NCBI GenBank assembly: GCA_028874985.1
Contig: JAPPGI010000228.1
Location: forward strand, 1-63,571
Direction of reading: 5' to 3'
DNA: 63,571 nucleotides
Origin: Gemmatimonadota bacterium
GTDB taxonomy: Bacteria; Gemmatimonadota; Gemmatimonadetes; Longimicrobiales; Gaopeijiaceae
Part shown: one piece after another, positions 1,526-63,571 of the stretch
How positions within the stretch are numbered: position 1 is the first letter of the stretch
Layout of the letters: each line of letters begins with the position of its first letter
Notes under the pieces: generated by a model
Seen by the model: only the letters and a program-made list of their open reading frames with translations
Told to the model about the DNA's origin: nothing
Database searches by the model: none
Position numbers and translations under genes: made by a program

Positions 1526-4500
1526 ATGAACAGACTCAAGCTTCTCGCGATGGCAGCACTCATGGCCATCCCCACGGTCATGGCGTGCGACGACGACCCG
1601 GTTCCGCCGAAGCCTACCGGTTCCATTGCGGGCCGGGTGACCATCGAGGGTCAGGGAATCGACGGGATCACCGTCACCCTGAGCGGCGGCACCACCGCCA
1701 CGACGGCGGGCGGAGGCAACTACCGTTTCGACAAGGTCGAAGCGGGAGACTACACGATCACCATCACCGGCTACCCGATGGGAGGCACCTTCGGCGCCAC
1801 CTCCACATCCGCCGTACTGGACGACGACGGCGAAGTCGTTACCGTGAACTTCGCGGGCTCGTGGATCAGAACATCCGTGATCGCGGGGGCGGTGACGGCG
1901 GAGGGGGACGGCCTGAACGGTGTAACGGTGAAGATCTCGGGCGTTTCCGAATCCGAGATCCAAACCGGCGCCGATGGCCGCTACGCCTTCTCCGGACTCC
2001 GGGCCGGCGACTACTCCGTCGAGATTTCCGGCTTCGATGTCGGCGAAGTGACCTTCGGGAGCACTTCGTCTTCGGCCACCGTGGCGGTGGACGAGTCGAA
2101 GGTCGTGAATTTCGAGGGGACCCATGTGCGCAACTCCGCGATCACGGGCCAGGTCAGCGTCGAAGGCAACCCGCTCGAGGGCGTCACCATCAGCCTGCAG
2201 GGCAAGGGCGAGAACCGGAACTACGAGACCAACGGCGCCGGACAGTACGTGTTCGAGGATCTTCGCTCCGGCGATTACTCCATCGGCATCTCCGGCTACG
2301 ACACCGACGAGTACGGCTTCCAGCCCACCTCGAAGACGATCGCCGTGGCGTCCGGCGAGACCGCCGGCGTTCCCTTCGAGGGGACGGCCCTGCGGACGGC
2401 GTCGATCATGGGTACGATCACCATCGAGGGCGTCGCGCTTGAAGGTGTCACGGTGAGTCTTCGCGGCGGCGGCGAGGACATCTCCGTCGTCACCGGCGCG
2501 GCCGGCCAGTACGCCTTCGACAGGCTGCACGCCGGCGACTACTCGGTCGCCATCTCCGGCTATGACACCGACGAGTACGGCTTCGAGGCCACCTCGAAGA
2601 GCGTCACGGTCGCGCTGAACGAGGCGGCGACGGTCAAGTTCGACGGCATCAACCTGCGCACGGCCGAAATCATGGGCCGGGTGTCGGTCGCCGGGAGCGG
2701 GCTCGGAGGCGTCACGGTCACGCTCGCAGGCAAGGAGGACCGGACCGGCACCACCGGCGCCGACGGCCGGTTCAGCTTCGCGGGCCTGGCGGCGGGCCGC
2801 TATGCGCTCTCCCTCTCGGGCTACGACGAGGCCGAGTACGAGTTCGACGCGAGCGACGAGATCACCCTGGCACTCGGCGAGTCGAGAGTGGAGAACTTCG
2901 TGGGCCGGTCGCTCAGGACGGCCGGCGTCGTAGGCGTGGTGACGGCCGAAGGCGAGGGCATCGCGGACGTGTCGGTGACGCTGATCGGGAGGCGGGACGG
3001 CAACCCGGGCGAGATCCTGGACGAGATGCAGACCGACTCCGGCGGCGGCTACGCCTTCGAGGACCTGCTCGCCGGTACGTACCGGGTCGAGATCGCCGAC
3101 TTCGGCGACGAGTACGACTTCGGGGCCACGATCTGGATTGCCGCGGTCGCGACGGACGAGACCGCCACGGCCGACTTCGACGCGACGATCATCCGCACCG
3201 CCGGTGTGAGCGGCTCGGTGTCGGTGGACGGCGAGGCCCTGACGGGCGTGGAGATCACGCTTGCGGGCGATCACGCCCCGGTCGAGAACACGCTGGAGAC
3301 GGACGCCGACGGCCGCTACGCCTTCGACGGGCTGCGCAGGGGCGCGTACACCGTGACGCTCGCGAACCCGGACGAGGAGCTGTACGACTTCGCCACCCCG
3401 TCGCTGGCGGTGAACCTGTCGGTCGGACAGATGCGGGACGACGTGTCGTTCGCGGGCGAGTTGCTGCGCAAGGCCGACATCAGCGGCCGCGTGCACGTGG
3501 ACGGCGTCGGTCTCGAGGGCGTGACGGTCGCGCTCACGGGCGACGCGGACGCCGAGGCAACCACGGACGGCAACGGCGAATACGAGTTCCCCGCCCTGGC
3601 CGGCGGCGACTACTCGCTGGAGATCTCGGGGTGGGACCATGTCGCCTACGAATTCGAGACGAGCGGCCTGGATGTGCGTCTCGAGGCCGACGAGGCGAGG
3701 ATCGCGGACTTCCGGGGAGAGCACACGGCGACCGCATCGATCGGCGGCGTGTTGTTCCTCGACGAGATCGACGACGACGGCGAGCTCGCCCAGGGTGAGC
3801 CGAACCTGCTCATGGAGATCCCGCTGCTCCTTCACGGACCGGGCGTCCACGATGTCAGCACCGGCGTGTCGACCGCCGACGGAGCCTACTCGTTCGACGG
3901 CCTGAAGGCGGGCTCGTACCGCGTGGTCATCGCCGCGGGCGACTCCCTGAGACAGGAGCTCGGCGAAGCCGGGTACAGGTTCACCGGCAAGGCGATGGGA
4001 GCGATGGTAGAGGTGGCCGCCGGGGCCTCGGAGACGGTGAACTTCCCCTTCCGCATCACGGCGCAGACGATTCTCGTCGGTGCCGCGATGGGGAACGCGT
4101 CCCGGATCGGCGACCCGGTCGGCGATGTCCGTCTGGCACTCTACCCGACCGCCGGGGACGCCAGGAAGGGCACCAACCTCCTCGGCACGGCAACGACCGC
4201 ACCAGGCGGAGACGAAGCCGGATTCGCGGCTTTCGACTTCGCGCGCGAAGACGACGGCGACCGCCGGGTCTTCGCCAAGCTGTTGGAAACGGGGCACACC
4301 GACCTGGCGGCCCTCGACAACGACCTAATCGAGATCAGCTACGAGGCTACCGACCGCGCCACCCGGGTCCCGGCGGCGGTACGGCTTCTCAATACCCGCG
4401 TGAACTTCCGGTGGTGGGTGAGGAGCGATGCCGACGCGAAGGACGGGAACCGGGTCCTGCCGGGCTGGGCCGCGACCAACGGCATCGTGACGGACGGCGA

Positions 4501-7036
4501 CGGCAAGGCCGCCTATTCGGGCAACGTCGATGCGTCCGACCTGCCGGCGACCTTCACCGTGGCGCTCGACACGCGCGCGGACCAACCGGACATGGGCGAG
4601 CGGTGGGTCCAGTCGGGCGAGCTCACATACATTCACGACGGCTTGTCGCCTCCGGCCCTCAACACGGCGGCCGGAAACGACCTGGGTCCGATCCACGTCA
4701 CCTGGACCACGCAGGCGCTCGTGGTCGGCGTGTACCGCGAGGCCGACGACGCGCCCGGCTACACGGACTATCAGAGCAGGCTGCCCGGCGGCGACCACCG
4801 CCCCGCCGCTAGCGTTGGCGAAGAAATGAAAGTCGAGTTGCTGGCGCGGACGGGCGACAACGGTCTTCAGCGCTACGCGTGGGACCACGACGGCAACCCG
4901 CATACCGAGATGAAGGAAGGCTACTCGGCCGTCGGTCCCGACGGCATGGTCCGGTTCGCCGGCATCCCGGCGGACGACGAGATCACCATCCGTTTCCACG
5001 AAGGTGACGACCGCGTCCTGGTAACCCAACTCGAGAACGTCGAAACCCATGGCGGCAATCTGGACATCGGGGCGACCATCGGCGCGTTCGGCACGCTGAG
5101 CGGCGGTGGACCCGAGGTTCGCATCTGCACGGCCTCCGAGGAAACGGGCGACGACGATTGCGCCACCTTCGGGTACCGGTGGACCACCGGTTCGGTGAGC
5201 GGCCGGGTGGGCGGCGAAAGTGGCCACAAGGTCGTTCTGGAGCCCGCGACCGACGGCCACGGCGCACTCGATGACAGCTCGACCAGCGGCGGGAACGGCG
5301 CCTTCGGCTTCACCGGCCTACAGGACGGCGAGTACTCGATCACGGCCTCCGGGACCGCCACCCACAAGGTGGACGGCGAGCCCACGCAGACCGTCTGGGT
5401 CTACCACGACGAAAAGGCCGGCACGGCCGGGACCGACATTGCCCGGTGGACGACCACGAGGATCGCGCTGAAGATCATGGGCTACATCGGAAACGACGCC
5501 GACGGCGACAAGCTGATGCGCGGTGACGAAGCCCTGGCGGGCGTCGCGGTCAGCCTGACCCAGGGTCCCGAGACCGTCGCAACCGTCGAGACGGATGCAC
5601 GCGGGCTGTACGTATTCGAGAACCTGGAAGAGGGACGCTACGTCGTGACCGCGAGCTCGGGCAGCGACTACCTGGTGCTGCGCGGGTTCGACCCCGACAC
5701 CGATGCGGCCATCACCACCGCAACAGCCGTCGCCGACGAGTACCCGGTGCCGCGCGAGGGCAAATACCGCCTGCCCTCCTGGAACTACGAGAACAGCAGC
5801 GCCAACTACACGGCCGTCAAGGTTCGCAAGCCGGCCAGCACGGCAAAGGCCACACTGGTCAACTTCGCGCTCGTGTACACCGACGGCGAACTCTCGGGCG
5901 GGCTCGGGAACGTGAGCGGCAGCGCCGCGGACATCGATCTCCGGATCTACCGCGAACGCGACGGCCAGGTGACCGAAGTGACGACCGACAGCCGTGGGCG
6001 GTTCGAGGCGGGCCGGCTCGAGGAGGGTTCGTACAGGGTCGAGATCGATGATGCCCGCTTTGCGGCACCGTGTCTCACGGCCGCCGACGGAACGCCCGAC
6101 GACGACGGGCCCGACGCCGATGCCGACGGGGTGTGCGATCACCCGGCCCCCCTGGAGCTCAAAGCCGACCTGAGGGGCGGAGAGGCGCTCGTCGACCTGC
6201 CCGTCCTGCACGTCTACGACATCAAGCTCTTCGCCGACGATTCGCTGGGCGATCTGCCGGGCGTCAAGGCGAGGATGCAGGGAAGGTACTCCCGCACCTA
6301 CAACGACACCGTGACCTGGACTCCGGACTGGGTCCGCAAGCCCGACAGCGAGGAGACGCACAACACCACGAGCCTCGGCACCATCAGCTGGGCGTCGAAG
6401 AGCGCCGCCTTCTCCTTCCCGGAGGACGGCTCCATACCCGAGGGCGCCGGCGTCGTGGTAATGAAGGACACCACGGTCTGCGCGGACCATACCTGCGAGC
6501 TGGACTACAACGGGACCGGCACTCCGCGCCGTTCCGCGCGCGAGACCACCCTCACGGTCACGGTCACGGCGGAGAACGGCTACGACGACCACACCTACAC
6601 CGTCGTGGTCGCGCGCGCCAATCCGGTGGGCAACGACATGGAGTCAGACCGGGTGAGGCGCCACAACGCCGACGACACCTCGTACACCGCCGCCGCCGGC
6701 TACGGCACCGCCGACGAGCCCTACACGCTGGAAACCGACAGCGCCGAGGCCGGTTCGCTGAAGCTGCACGTCGACCTGAGGCACTTCGGAATCCTTGGCG
6801 ACAATGCGGCGTGCGCGCAGTCCCTCGTCGTCAAGACCGACCCCGATGAGGAAGAGAAGGACGCCGAGGCCGAGGAAATCGAGGCCGACCCCGACGCCGA
6901 GGACGACATCTGCGCGAACGAGCGCTACACGCTGAGCGTGGCGGAGGAGGGCTCCCGCTACACGCTGCACGTCTACTCGGAAGACGGGGTGGAGAAGGTC
7001 CACCACCTCGAGCTCGGCAGGGGTCCCGAGAACTGA
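1526..7036 (+). CDS. Giant repeat lipoprotein with carboxypeptidase-regulatory/Cna-B-like domains
   Basis: Predicted surface or outer-membrane lipoprotein of 1836 residues. The ATG at 1526 is chosen because AGAGGAAAG precedes it and it gives a clean lipoprotein signal peptide ending VMAC, with lipidated Cys21 followed by Asp residues. Residues about 31-735 form eight tandem beta-sandwich repeats of 85-92 residues. Each opens like GxVxxEGxxLxGVTVxLxG and continues with a T(D/A)xxGxYxFxxLxxGDYxVxISGY core, as in CarboxypepD_reg/SdrD-B domains. More divergent copies follow at about 736-830, 1210-1300, 1310-1390 and 1445-1510. The C-terminus has a cadherin-like beta-sandwich segment ending in YTVVVARANP and an acidic tail. 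No enzymatic motif was seen. A role in adhesion, as a matrix scaffold or as an extended stalk is inferred from architecture. The DNA repeats have a period near 265 bp. Confidence 0.85.
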   Translation: MNRLKLLAMAALMAIPTVMACDDDPVPPKPTGSIAGRVTIEGQGIDGITVTLSGGTTATTAGGGNYRFDKVEAGDYTITITGYPMGGTFGATSTSAVLDDDGEVVTVNFAGSWIRTSVIAGAVTAEGDGLNGVTVKISGVSESEIQTGADGRYAFSGLRAGDYSVEISGFDVGEVTFGSTSSSATVAVDESKVVNFEGTHVRNSAITGQVSVEGNPLEGVTISLQGKGENRNYETNGAGQYVFEDLRSGDYSIGISGYDTDEYGFQPTSKTIAVASGETAGVPFEGTALRTASIMGTITIEGVALEGVTVSLRGGGEDISVVTGAAGQYAFDRLHAGDYSVAISGYDTDEYGFEATSKSVTVALNEAATVKFDGINLRTAEIMGRVSVAGSGLGGVTVTLAGKEDRTGTTGADGRFSFAGLAAGRYALSLSGYDEAEYEFDASDEITLALGESRVENFVGRSLRTAGVVGVVTAEGEGIADVSVTLIGRRDGNPGEILDEMQTDSGGGYAFEDLLAGTYRVEIADFGDEYDFGATIWIAAVATDETATADFDATIIRTAGVSGSVSVDGEALTGVEITLAGDHAPVENTLETDADGRYAFDGLRRGAYTVTLANPDEELYDFATPSLAVNLSVGQMRDDVSFAGELLRKADISGRVHVDGVGLEGVTVALTGDADAEATTDGNGEYEFPALAGGDYSLEISGWDHVAYEFETSGLDVRLEADEARIADFRGEHTATASIGGVLFLDEIDDDGELAQGEPNLLMEIPLLLHGPGVHDVSTGVSTADGAYSFDGLKAGSYRVVIAAGDSLRQELGEAGYRFTGKAMGAMVEVAAGASETVNFPFRITAQTILVGAAMGNASRIGDPVGDVRLALYPTAGDARKGTNLLGTATTAPGGDEAGFAAFDFAREDDGDRRVFAKLLETGHTDLAALDNDLIEISYEATDRATRVPAAVRLLNTRVNFRWWVRSDADAKDGNRVLPGWAATNGIVTDGDGKAAYSGNVDASDLPATFTVALDTRADQPDMGERWVQSGELTYIHDGLSPPALNTAAGNDLGPIHVTWTTQALVVGVYREADDAPGYTDYQSRLPGGDHRPAASVGEEMKVELLARTGDNGLQRYAWDHDGNPHTEMKEGYSAVGPDGMVRFAGIPADDEITIRFHEGDDRVLVTQLENVETHGGNLDIGATIGAFGTLSGGGPEVRICTASEETGDDDCATFGYRWTTGSVSGRVGGESGHKVVLEPATDGHGALDDSSTSGGNGAFGFTGLQDGEYSITASGTATHKVDGEPTQTVWVYHDEKAGTAGTDIARWTTTRIALKIMGYIGNDADGDKLMRGDEALAGVAVSLTQGPETVATVETDARGLYVFENLEEGRYVVTASSGSDYLVLRGFDPDTDAAITTATAVADEYPVPREGKYRLPSWNYENSSANYTAVKVRKPASTAKATLVNFALVYTDGELSGGLGNVSGSAADIDLRIYRERDGQVTEVTTDSRGRFEAGRLEEGSYRVEIDDARFAAPCLTAADGTPDDDGPDADADGVCDHPAPLELKADLRGGEALVDLPVLHVYDIKLFADDSLGDLPGVKARMQGRYSRTYNDTVTWTPDWVRKPDSEETHNTTSLGTISWASKSAAFSFPEDGSIPEGAGVVVMKDTTVCADHTCELDYNGTGTPRRSARETTLTVTVTAENGYDDHTYTVVVARANPVGNDMESDRVRRHNADDTSYTAAAGYGTADEPYTLETDSAEAGSLKLHVDLRHFGILGDNAACAQSLVVKTDPDEEEKDAEAEEIEADPDAEDDICANERYTLSVAEEGSRYTLHVYSEDGVEKVHHLELGRGPEN

Positions 7037-53953: not shown

Positions 53954-55204
53954 GTGGAGGAAGGGGACACCGCGCGCCCGCGCCGATGGCCGCTTGTGGC
54001 GACGGTCGGGGCGTTGCACCGTTGGTGCATGGAAGCGGATCGGTTGCAAGCTGAGAGGAAGCGGGCGCTGCTCGCGCGGCCGGTCCGGCACATCGACGTG
54101 ACCGCCTTCGACGGGCGCGCCGTGATCGACGCGTACCGCGACGCGGCGCTCCAGGCGCGCAACCTGGCCGAGGCGGCCGACATCTTCGCCGAGATGGTCG
54201 AGGAGCCCGGGGGCGTGGTAATCCTCACGCTGGCGGGGTCGCTGGTGTCCGCCGGGCTCAGGGAGACGCTCCTCGCGCTGGTGGAGTGCGACATGGTGGA
54301 CGTGATCGTGGCCACCGGCGCGATCGTGGTCGACCAGGACTTCTTCGAGGCGCTGGGGTTCCGGCACTACATGGCCCCGGGATCGCCCGAGGCGCCGGTG
54401 GTGGAGGACGAAGAGCTCCGGGAGCTGGAAATCGACCGAATCTACGATACGTGGGTGGACGAGGTGGAGATGCGCGTGTGCGACGAGACGGTGGCGGGGG
54501 TCCTGGACGGAATGGAGGCGCGGGCGTATTCGAGCCGGGAGGTCGTGAGGGAATTGGGCGCGTACCTGGAACGGCATCACGCCGATGCGCGCTCGATCGT
54601 CCTGGAGGCGTACCGCCGGGACGTGCCGGTGTTCGTGCCGGCGCTCAGCGACTCGTCGGCGGGATTCGGCGTGGTGGCGCACCGGGTGAGGGCGGGGGCA
54701 CGGGGGGCGCCGCATGTGGCCTTCGACGCCGGAAAGGACTTCCACGAGCTGGCGAGGATCAAGCTGGCGGCCCCCGAGACGGGGCTGCTGATGGTGGGTG
54801 GGGGCGTGCCGAAGAACTTCGCCCAGGACGCGGTCGTCGCGGCCCGCACGCTGGCGGAAGCGGGCCCCGCCCCGCGGCACGTTCCCATGCACGGGCGCGC
54901 CGTGCAGCTCACGGTGGCCGATCCGCGCGACGGCGGCCTCTCGGGCTCCACCCTGCGCGAGGCCGCGAGCTGGGGCAAGGTGGCGACGGCGCGGGAACGC
55001 ATGGTGTACGGCGAAGCCACGCTGACCCTGCCGCTGCTCGTGAGCGACGCGTACCACCGGGGGGTGTGGCGGGGTCGGCGGGCTCGCCGCCTGGGCCTGC
55101 TCTTCCGCGCGGGGGCGGCCGCGCGGCGGGAGGCTCCGGAAAACGCGACGAACCCCTCCCACGCCCCCGTCCCGCCGCCACGCTCCCCGGTGGGTTCGCC
55201 TTGA
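53954..55204 (+). CDS. Deoxyhypusine synthase-like protein
   Basis: 416 residues from GTG 53954, or about 391 from ATG 54029. The NAD-dependent DHS fold is visible in VVILTLAGSLVSAGLRETL, VIVATGAIVVDQDFFEAL and GLLMVGGGVPKNFAQDAV. The active-site Lys is conserved as Lys342 in REAASWGKVATARERMVYGE, aligned with AVSWGKI of the eukaryotic enzyme. Bacteria lack eIF5A, so the substrate here must differ; bacterial members are often called homospermidine/DHS-like. Its TGA overlaps the TTG of the AddB-like gene, so it is translationally coupled to a DNA repair operon. Confidence 0.9.
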   Translation: MEEGDTARPRRWPLVATVGALHRWCMEADRLQAERKRALLARPVRHIDVTAFDGRAVIDAYRDAALQARNLAEAADIFAEMVEEPGGVVILTLAGSLVSAGLRETLLALVECDMVDVIVATGAIVVDQDFFEALGFRHYMAPGSPEAPVVEDEELRELEIDRIYDTWVDEVEMRVCDETVAGVLDGMEARAYSSREVVRELGAYLERHHADARSIVLEAYRRDVPVFVPALSDSSAGFGVVAHRVRAGARGAPHVAFDAGKDFHELARIKLAAPETGLLMVGGGVPKNFAQDAVVAARTLAEAGPAPRHVPMHGRAVQLTVADPRDGGLSGSTLREAASWGKVATARERMVYGEATLTLPLLVSDAYHRGVWRGRRARRLGLLFRAGAAARREAPENATNPSHAPVPPPRSPVGSP

Positions 55205-61957: not shown

Positions 61958-62257
61958 TTGAATACACGGATTCCCGACAGCTGGCCTGCCGCGGTCCGCG
62001 AACTGCATCGCGACTACACCGGCTTTTTCGACCGCTTTTTCGATTTCCACATCGCTGCGCGAGAGCCGAGAGCAAGGCACCTTCTCAAGAGGGTCAAGCG
62101 TGAGATTGAGCGGCTCGCGGTGAGTTACGAACCCGGAGAAGTGAATGCGGTGATTGAAGAACTCTCATGGCTGCAAAACGACTTGGATGGAGTTGCTCTA
62201 CGCGATGAAACACGGGGGCGGAGCCGCCGGACTGGGACCCTCTCGACATCCGGGTGA
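61958..62257 (+). CDS. Small hypothetical helical protein
   Basis: 99 residues from a TTG at 61958, not recognised. The core is helical and charged (PAAVRELHRDYTGFFDRFFD, ARHLLKRVKREIERLAVSYE, VNAVIEELSWLQNDLDGV). The last part runs into the conserved leader block of the lipoprotein array and is Arg/Ser-rich, which suggests the true C-terminus was altered when the array formed. No ribosome-binding site is visible, so confidence is low. Confidence 0.4.
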   Translation: MNTRIPDSWPAAVRELHRDYTGFFDRFFDFHIAAREPRARHLLKRVKREIERLAVSYEPGEVNAVIEELSWLQNDLDGVALRDETRGRSRRTGTLSTSG

Positions 62258-62297
62258 CCTGGCTCAAGCACCTGAAGAAATAGGAAGGCGGGAAATG
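62221..62297 (+). repeat. Array leader block, copy 1
   Basis: A block near-identical to those at 62861 and 63301. It contains the core DWDPLDIRVTWLK when read in frame, ending at a stop shortly before the lipoprotein ATG. In this copy an in-frame stop lies just upstream of the block. See the findings for interpretation. Confidence 0.75.
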
Positions 62298-62675
62298 AGA
62301 ACAGCCAGAAACATCGCCCTGGCCGCCCTCGTCGCGACGACGGCCTGTGGGGGGGGAAGCCCCCCCTGCGAGTTCTTCGTCGTGCCTGTGGGCGAGATGC
62401 CGGACCTCGAGATGCTGGTCGGGGATACGGTGGAGACGCCCCTCGCGGACCACTTCACCGACCCCGATTGCTTGGAAGGCAAAGGCCCCCTTTGGGAGGC
62501 CCGGTCGTCCGACCCGTCGGCGGTAGCCGTCTCGGTTTCGAACTCCGCCGTTCTCACGACCGCCGCCCTCGATGTGGCGAACTCGGTGCTCGTGACGGTG
62601 GCATTCCATATCAGTCCGGAGGAGCTCAGTCACGAGTTCTTGGTGCGGGTTCGGCCACACCCCACGGGCCGCTGA
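62295..62675 (+). CDS. Small lipoprotein, apparently intact array member
   Basis: 126-residue lipoprotein beginning MRTARNIALAALVATTACGG with the lipobox at ATTAC. Behind it a short Ig-like or Big-2-like domain is visible: MPDLEMLVGDTVETPLADHF, then SSDPSAVAVSVSNSAVLTTA and VLVTVAFHISPEELSHEFLV. It has no signal for enzymatic function; a surface or periplasmic binding role is inferred. It is the first of three copies in a row, and the only one that reads through. Confidence 0.7.
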   Translation: MRTARNIALAALVATTACGGGSPPCEFFVVPVGEMPDLEMLVGDTVETPLADHFTDPDCLEGKGPLWEARSSDPSAVAVSVSNSAVLTTAALDVANSVLVTVAFHISPEELSHEFLVRVRPHPTGR

Positions 62676-62860
62676 AGGGCCGCCGAGCGGCTTCCGGACT
62701 GTGGCGCCCGGCGCTGCCGGTAAGGGGGGAAACGGGGGCAGGGCAGGGCCAGTCTACTCCGGTGCGGGTACGACCGGGGCTGGCGAGGGGGTTCCCCTTC
62801 GGTCCCCCGGCGGCGCGTCAAGCCGTCGACCTTCCGACGGATGTCAAGGAAAAGGCCACG

Positions 62861-62935
62861 GAGCCGCCCGACTGGGACCCTCTCGACATCCGGGTGACCT
62901 GGCTCAAGAACCTGAAATAGAGGAGACGGGAAATG
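62861..62935 (+). repeat. Array leader block, copy 2
   Basis: Second copy of the block, with EPPDWDPLDIRVTWLKNLK followed by a stop, then AGGAGACGGGAA and the ATG of the second lipoprotein copy. It is in frame with a longer open frame upstream here (AARQAVDLPTDVKEKATE), unlike copy 1. Confidence 0.75.
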
Positions 62936-63227
62936 AGAACAGCCAGAAACATCGCCATGGCCGCAGTTGTCGCGACGATTCCGGCCTGCGGGGGAACCGC
63001 CCCCTGCGACGCCGAGTTCGGGCCTTGGGGCGACGAGCTGCCCGACCTCGACATGCTGGTCGGGGACACGACCCGGCGGCGGTCGCCGTCTCGGTTTCGG
63101 GGGGCGTTCTCACGACCGCCGCCATCGACGTGGCGGACTCCGTGCGCGTGACCGTGGATGGGCCCAAGGGGGCGAAGAACCCGATCCCCCCGACGAGTTC
63201 TACGTGTCAGTGACGGCTCCCCGGTAG
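62933..63227 (+). pseudogene. Second lipoprotein copy, deleted and frameshifted
   Basis: Starts MRTARNIAMAAVVATIPACGG and follows copy 1 to LDMLVGDT. A deletion of roughly 85 bases relative to copy 1 then shifts the frame, and the Big-2-like part (AVAVSVSGGVLTTAAIDVAD) continues in another frame. A second shift near a run of C (GATCCCCCCGAC) is needed to reach DEFYVSVTAPR and a stop at 63225-63227. It cannot make a normal product unless shifted during translation. Confidence 0.65.
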
Positions 63228-63300
63228 CTTTCTTTCCGGGAGTCGAAGATCCTGACCCGGAAGGGCGCTTCGAGGGGAGCGGGCTGGCTGGCGACGGCCG

Positions 63301-63365
63301 TGGGACCCCCTCGACATCCGGGTGACCTGGCTCAAGAACCTGAAGAGATGGGAGAGAGAAAAATG
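63301..63365 (+). repeat. Array leader block, copy 3
   Basis: Third copy: WDPLDIRVTWLKNLK followed by RWEREK and a stop overlapping the third ATG. Conservation at DNA level is as high as or higher than that of the lipoprotein it precedes. Confidence 0.7.
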
Positions 63366-63571
63366 AGAACAGCCATAGGCATCGCTCTGGCCGCCGCCCT
63401 CGTCGCGACGACGGCCTGTGGCGGGGGAACCCCCCCTGCTTCATCGAGGTCGGGCCTGTGGGCGAGATGCCGGACCTCGCCATGCTGGTCGGGGACACGG
63501 TGGAGACGTCCCTCGCGACCAGCTTCACCCCGCCCTCCGGCGGCCCGCCCCGGAACCGTATCCGGCCCACG
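63363..63571 (+). pseudogene. Third lipoprotein copy, partial and frameshifted, runs off the window
   Basis: Begins MRTAIGIALAAALVATTACGG, then loses frame within a C run (GGGGGAACCCCCCCTGC, 63423 onward). One extra C would restore the reading PCFIEVGPVGEMPDLAMLVG that matches copy 1. The remaining 140 bases run to the end of the window. Either a pseudogene, a phase-variable gene or a sequencing error in the homopolymer. Confidence 0.6.

What the first reader, a model, noticed from the sequence alone, without database searches (positions are those of the whole stretch)
62221..63571. Tandem array of a small lipoprotein gene with decayed copies
Three consecutive units each carry a nearly identical leader block followed by a lipoprotein gene beginning MRTA. 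Copy 1 reads through. Copy 2 has an internal deletion plus a frameshift at a C run. Copy 3 has a one-base frameshift in a C run. The pattern suggests recent duplication with gene decay, or slip-strand switching (phase variation) at the homopolymers of a surface lipoprotein. The array continues beyond the window.
Basis: partly seen in the sequence, partly recalled or inferred. Interest (0 to 1): 0.55.

Follow-up and report, generated by a model that had tools for sequence, protein, structure and literature searches.

The report
Decayed peptidase-plus-lipoprotein gene array
Three copies of a small surface-lipoprotein gene, two of them damaged, turn out to be leftovers of a two-gene unit (a predicted secreted protein-cutting enzyme followed by a small lipoprotein) that is still intact in a sister species; nothing here points to an on/off switch.

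Summary
The array is real. Copy 1 is open; copy 2 has an internal deletion and two frame changes; copy 3 is one base out of frame beside a C run. The 'leader block' is not regulatory: it is the last 16-40 codons of an upstream gene, best kept in same-genus genome G014. There a ~600-residue HExxH...E zinc-peptidase-like lipoprotein is followed within a few bases by an intact homologue of the window's lipoprotein, and the pair recurs on several contigs. Across the family, 14 of 15 near-full peptidase genes have a small exported gene directly downstream, of several dissimilar kinds. In the window's genome no intact peptidase was found; only tails remain, and of seven lipoprotein copies on three contigs one is intact. 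Copy 3 ends in a TnpB transposase fragment at the contig end, so 'the array continues' is not supported. Phase variation is not supported: G/C runs of 7 or more are as frequent as expected (18 against 16.2), they are absent from intact homologues, and both frame-shifted third units share one offset. Best reading: a relic of a peptidase/lipoprotein module with recombining flank blocks, organised like tandem immunity-gene arrays. That the lipoprotein restrains its peptidase is inferred only.

The parts
62221..62283 (+).
   Evidence: Frame and homology to the C-termini of intact peptidases of G014 and others
62295..62675 (+). Lipoprotein copy 1, intact, 126 aa, single bacterial Ig-like domain behind a lipobox-like signal (lipobox judged by eye)
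   Evidence: homology to Ig-like repeats
62643..62815 (+). 3' homology block: end of copy 1 plus downstream spacer, identical to C170 over this stretch and running into the peptidase tail of unit 2
   Evidence: 1 of 198 differences for 62643-62840 against 25 of 153 in the preceding domain part
62825..62920 (+). Remnant 2: last ~31 codons and stop of the peptidase gene
   Evidence: 81% identity to peptidase residues 568-598
62933..63227 (+). Lipoprotein copy 2, pseudogene (internal deletion, two frame changes)
63301..63348 (+). Remnant 3: last ~16 codons of the peptidase gene, stop lost
63363..63520 (+). Lipoprotein copy 3, pseudogene: one-base frame shift next to a C7 run, cut at about 63520
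63517..63571 (-). Fragment of a tnpB (IS605 OrfB) transposase gene; contig ends here
   Evidence: 98% identity to the interior of the tnpB gene of C202, 96% to C183

Best explanation
The feature is a relic array. The ancestral unit was two genes: a secreted, lipid-anchored zinc-peptidase-like protein (HExxH...E) and, directly downstream, a small Ig-like lipoprotein, followed by a conserved spacer. In this lineage the peptidase halves were deleted down to their last 16-40 codons (shown). At least one truncated form was then copied: units on C2, C170 and C183 share the same junction (shown). Recombination through the near-identical tail and spacer blocks multiplied and mixed the units (inferred from the mosaic identity). 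The lipoproteins then decayed by deletion, frame shift and insertion of foreign DNA (shown). In the intact module the lipoprotein most likely acts on or with its peptidase at the cell surface, as an inhibitor or self-protection partner (inferred; I give this step about 0.35). Nothing suggests that the window array is a switch.
For: Tail homology: the leader frame matches the invariant peptidase C-terminus (W584, R590, W593 invariant in 12 of 12 rows). Pairs with an open peptidase in G014 on C48, C128, C93 and C47, and further pairs whose peptidase is frame-shifted on C48, C81 and C83. 14 of 15 near-full peptidase genes have a small exported gene within about 31 nt downstream. No intact peptidase in the own genome: 4 matches, all short. 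1 of 7 own lipoprotein copies intact; 10 of 10 assessed in G014 open, which random substitution did not reproduce in 400 simulations at any setting tried. Shared deletion junction of C2 unit 2, C170 unit 2 and C183. Conserved flanks around a variable core: in the G014 pair 81b/128 tail 100%, signal 100%, mature 88%; in 81a/81b 97, 90, 73%.
Against: The own genome is a 95% complete assembly in 230 contigs; an intact peptidase could be missing. Contigs C2, C170 and C183 all end in the array, so a 198-bp near-identical block could have been joined wrongly. Inhibition was not tested by anything here; partners of dissimilar kinds follow the same peptidase family, and one peptidase (G016 C79) has none. 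Both structure models are unusable (pLDDT 37.5 and 33.4), so the peptidase fold rests on motifs only. That the partner outlasts a broken peptidase elsewhere may only reflect its smaller size.
Confidence: 0.72

Rival explanations
1. Phase-variable surface lipoprotein: slippage at the G/C runs just after the lipobox switches copies on and off.
For: C2 copy 3 and C170 copy 3 are each one base short next to a G7 or C7 run, with the first part of the domain (C2) or the whole domain (C170, 103 aa) open in the other frame.
Against: Run frequency is that expected for the window (18 against 16.2); runs absent from the homologues in G014; irreversible lesions in copies 2 and 3; the two third units share the same offset.
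Confidence: 0.06
2. Orphan immunity island: the copies without a peptidase are kept because they protect against peptidases of neighbours.
For: Layout like tandem immunity arrays: conserved 5' and 3' blocks, variable core, remnants of the neighbour gene (comparison PMC9484751, passages). In G014 C81 tail-only units carry open lipoproteins. Broken peptidases with an intact partner also in G098 C34, G099 C13, G101 and G016 C49.
Against: In the window's own genome most copies are broken, the opposite of retention. Size alone predicts that the longer gene breaks first. No toxicity known.
Confidence: 0.2
3. Assembly or strain-mixture artefact: repeats collapsed, false frame shifts and a chimeric end.
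For: Three contig ends fall in the array; the last 55 bases are a repeat found elsewhere; a 198-bp block is nearly identical on two contigs.
Against: Copies differ by about 15-25% in their domains, too much for sequencing error; truncated tails next to open lipoproteins also occur in other genomes. Contamination is given as 1.19%.
Confidence: 0.12
4. The leader is a conserved regulatory or recombination element in its own right.
For: 97% identity of the 58-nt block between units 1 and 2.
Against: It is coding sequence of the peptidase, with the stop kept in units 1 and 2; no Rfam match; no sigma-70-like promoter in the region.
Confidence: 0.03

Closest known systems
Tandem T7SS immunity-gene arrays esaG, tipC, tsaI (PMC9484751; abstract, outline and 12 passages seen)
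   Same: Tandem non-identical paralogues beside the gene of a secreted protein, conserved sequence blocks at the ends including the downstream spacer, variable core, copy gain and loss by recombination at the blocks; TipC has a probable lipoprotein signal; a small pseudogene of the toxin lies among the tsaI genes.
   Different: Other phylum, no T7SS looked for here, partner is a peptidase-like lipoprotein rather than a known toxin, no neutralisation shown, and in the window most copies are dead.
S. aureus tandem lipoproteins (lpl), named in a passage of PMC9484751
   Same: Tandem small lipoproteins with copy-number variation.
   Different: No relation by sequence tested; here each unit carries a peptidase tail.
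Bacterial Ig-like domains (Pfam Big_2, Big_9, He_PIG)
   Same: The lipoprotein aligns with an Ig-like repeat of a large protein in the same genome (hhalign probability 94.8, E 5e-8, 45% identity); that protein matches Big_2 and Big_9.
   Different: The lipoprotein itself matches no Pfam model and has only one domain.
Zinc peptidases with HExxH (gluzincin-like; class name recalled)
   Same: Invariant H391-E392-H395 and E437 in 12 of 12 rows.
   Different: No Pfam or NCBIfam peptidase model reaches its cut-off and no solved relative was found.

Membership tests
Phase-variable (contingency) gene | Repeat tracts longer or more frequent than expected | tested here: not met
   18 runs against 16.2 expected in the window
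Phase-variable (contingency) gene | Tract conserved in homologues | tested here: not met
   G014 copies lack comparable runs at that place
Phase-variable (contingency) gene | Tract-length variants within a population | not testable with these tools
   No reads held
Tandem immunity-gene array | Tandem non-identical copies next to the partner gene | tested here: met
   G014 C48 and C81; in the window only partner tails remain
Tandem immunity-gene array | Conserved end blocks with a variable core and signs of recombination | tested here: met
   Segment identities in most G014 pairs compared; 1/198 against 25/153 differences between C2 and C170, Fisher p 4.7e-9
Tandem immunity-gene array | The small protein neutralises the partner | not testable with these tools
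   Needs an experiment
HExxH...E zinc peptidase | HExxH with a downstream Glu, invariant | tested here: met
   Alignment A3, 12 of 12 rows
HExxH...E zinc peptidase | Match to a curated peptidase family | tested here: not met
   Only weak matches: Peptidase_M78 in 4 of 12 rows (best E 0.0064), Zn_peptidase_2 in 2 of 12 (best E 0.0032); NCBIfam none reliable
HExxH...E zinc peptidase | Zincin fold | tested here: inconclusive
   Model pLDDT 33.4; not searched
Bacterial Ig-like domain | Sequence homology to Big repeats | tested here: met
Bacterial Ig-like domain | Direct Pfam match of the lipoprotein | tested here: not met
   window copy; two G014 copies, nothing at cut-off

The most novel reading that the evidence does not exclude
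A conserved cell-surface zinc-peptidase family of this Gemmatimonadota lineage is paired with interchangeable small lipoproteins (Ig-like, two other lipoprotein types, and others) that restrain it, forming an undescribed protease-based antagonism or self-protection system; the window shows a graveyard of its orphan protection genes, shuffled through peptidase-tail and spacer blocks.
Probability: 0.2. Interest if true: 0.7.

Novelty: new variant of a known kind. Interest (0 to 1): 0.4.

Why it matters
It turns an apparent switch with a mystery leader into a gene pair with a testable partnership: an unclassified peptidase-like family in a little-studied, partly sponge-associated lineage, nearly always followed by a fast-changing small exported protein. 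If the lipoprotein restrains the peptidase, it would be a new kind of protease/protector pair with swapped partners. If not, the case still shows that conserved blocks in front of repeated genes can be coding remnants.

Tried and rejected
Phase variation: rejected on run statistics, homologues and irreversible lesions. Leader as RNA or promoter element: rejected (explained). One array split over contigs: not supported. The anchors next to C2, C170 and C183 (AddA-like helicase-nuclease, prolyl oligopeptidase, bifunctional nuclease) lie at least 146 kb apart in complete genomes G021 and G001, and no array stands at those places in G021, G001 or G014. Conserved breakpoint of the tails: suspected from clustered profile starts but dropped, because several tails continue upstream in another frame. 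Selection test: dN/dS 0.76-1.56 among the ten G014 lipoprotein copies and 0.74-0.93 among G014 peptidase paralogues, against 0.26-0.41 for the closest between-genome peptidase pairs and mostly 0.4-0.8 for the others. This fits fast diversification, but the Nei-Gojobori method is biased at high GC3 and the pairs are not independent, so I do not call it positive selection. Selective retention of the partner: not claimed, since gene length alone predicts it. Structure: both predictions too poor for a fold search, so none was run. Carriage on phages or plasmids: no phage match, one weak plasmid match. PADLOC: only weak capP and RmrA matches at the HExxH region.

An early filter missed downstream lipoproteins in G009 and G014 C81b, and the one missed those of G100 and G099 C13; a frame-by-frame reading corrected this.

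Full report
What was checked. The window is a complete contig, C2, of a 4.25-Mb, 230-contig genome (completeness 95.41, contamination 1.19). The 24-nt core of the leader occurs five times in the genome, with no hit for the reversed control: three in C2, one in C170, one in C183. Lipoprotein copies in the whole genome: three here, three at the start of C170 (the first cut by the contig edge), one at the start of C183. Of these seven, one is intact (C2 copy 1). Five are broken: C2 copies 2 and 3, C170 copies 2 and 3 by frame shift, C183 cut at its 3' end by unrelated sequence. One cannot be judged. One search lists 97 matches in all; most of the weaker ones lie in large open frames with Ig-like repeats.

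What the leader is. A same-genus genome, G014, holds homologues at 70-75% DNA identity on three contigs; 9 of 98 genomes, the own one included, had any match. There the leader frame continues upstream as a gene of about 600 codons. The aligned family (12 rows) has invariant H391, E392, H395 and E437, and an invariant W584...R590..W593 at the very C-terminus: exactly the stretch that survives in the window. Several members begin with a signal and a cysteine typical of lipoproteins (by eye). No Pfam or NCBIfam peptidase model reaches its cut-off and no solved chain is related.

The pair. A search of 121 genomes of the family found the peptidase in 16, the own one included. I compared 15 near-full genes, leaving out fragments and the frame-shifted genes on G014 C81, C83 and C48. 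Directly downstream, on the same strand and within about 31 nt, there is a small exported gene in 14 of 15: Ig type in five (four of G014, one of G098), a second lipoprotein type in six (G005, G009, G019, G020, G099, G100), a third type in one (G014 C81b, followed by a second similar gene), and other exported proteins in G018 and G082. Types were sorted by eye; remote homology between them was not tested. The exception is G016 C79. On the peptidase tree the gene of G098 with an Ig-type partner sits beside a gene with a type-two partner (G005; support 92/87), so partners seem to have been exchanged. This is suggestive, not proven. Two of these 15 (G014 C47, cut by a contig end, and C48, no clear start) are not complete at the 5' end.

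Decay in the window's genome. Only four peptidase matches exist here at the limit used, all C-terminal: 31-32 residues in C2 and C183, 27 in C170, about 110 in C124. C2 unit 2, C170 unit 2 and C183 share the same sequence upstream of the tail, so the deletion preceded their multiplication. In G014, 10 of 10 assessed lipoprotein copies are open, although they differ by dS of 0.13 to 0.80; an 11th divergent copy on C81 was not assessed. In 400 simulated sets per setting (per-lineage distance 0.1-0.3, two base compositions) random substitution never left all ten open, so they are under selection there. In the window's genome most are broken. The loss of the peptidases and the decay of the lipoproteins thus go together in this genome.

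Recombination. C2 copy 1 and C170 copy 1 differ at 25 of 153 sites in the later part of the domain but at 1 of 198 in the gene end, spacer and start of the next tail (Fisher p 4.7e-9). Spacers should not be better conserved than coding sequence unless they are exchanged or were mis-joined by the assembler. In G014 the tail and signal segments of several pairs are 85-100% identical while the mature parts are 73-88% (81a/81b, 81a/81c, 81b/81c, 81b/128, 48b/83; in 81a/81c signal and mature are equal, 85%). The pairs 48a/48b and 48a/83 break the rule for the signal segment (67 and 63%). This resembles the homology blocks of tandem T7SS immunity genes (PMC9484751; abstract, outline and passages seen), where blocks at the gene ends and the downstream spacer mediate gain and loss of copies. 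I file the array as working like those arrays in its recombination, not as a member: neutralisation is untested.

The end of the window. Bases 63517-63571 match the interior of a tnpB gene. The array either was hit by an IS605-type element or the assembly graph broke there; 55 bases would suit a k-mer overlap (recalled habit of assemblers, not tested). Either way the statement that the array continues has no support.

Phase variation. The runs are ordinary for a 69% GC sequence. Both third units are one base short at the same place, which suggests one old lesion. The domain of C170 copy 3 is still fully open over 103 codons, so a return slip would restore it; only reads can settle whether that happens.

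Print. Searches for Palauibacter or sponge Gemmatimonadota, for peptidase with lipoprotein inhibitor, and for orphan immunity with tandem lipoprotein arrays listed no paper that evidently describes this module. For PMC10469786 I saw the listing and one passage, the species table; other papers only in the listings, apart from PMC9484751. That the genus is Palauibacter is a guess from the name of G014's sample and was not tested.

Noticed in passing
window 63517-63571: Contig ends in a tnpB (IS605 OrfB, Cas12f1-like_TNB) gene fragment, 98% and 96% identical to two other places in the genome.
   Followed up: yes
L045 3-485 (start of contig C183): The C183 lipoprotein copy is cut by an open frame that looks recombinase-like by eye, but has no Pfam match.
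   Followed up: partly
L025 (G000 C84): Protein with about six Ig-like repeats followed by an M66-like metallopeptidase region; its repeats are relatives of the window's lipoprotein domain.
   Followed up: partly
L110, reverse strand, about 3950-5140 counted on the reverse strand (G014 C81): A peptidase gene of the same family followed by two similar lipoproteins of a third kind.
   Followed up: partly
window 53954-55204: Deoxyhypusine-synthase family protein (PF01916, E 5.7e-84), a family best known from archaea and eukaryotes (recalled).
   Followed up: no
window 61958-62257: A 99-codon open frame of unknown kind between the helicase-nuclease gene and the array; no Pfam match.
   Followed up: no
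window 62346-62370: G8/C7 inverted repeat inside the start of copy 1, scored as terminator-like by a simple scan, probably by composition.
   Followed up: no
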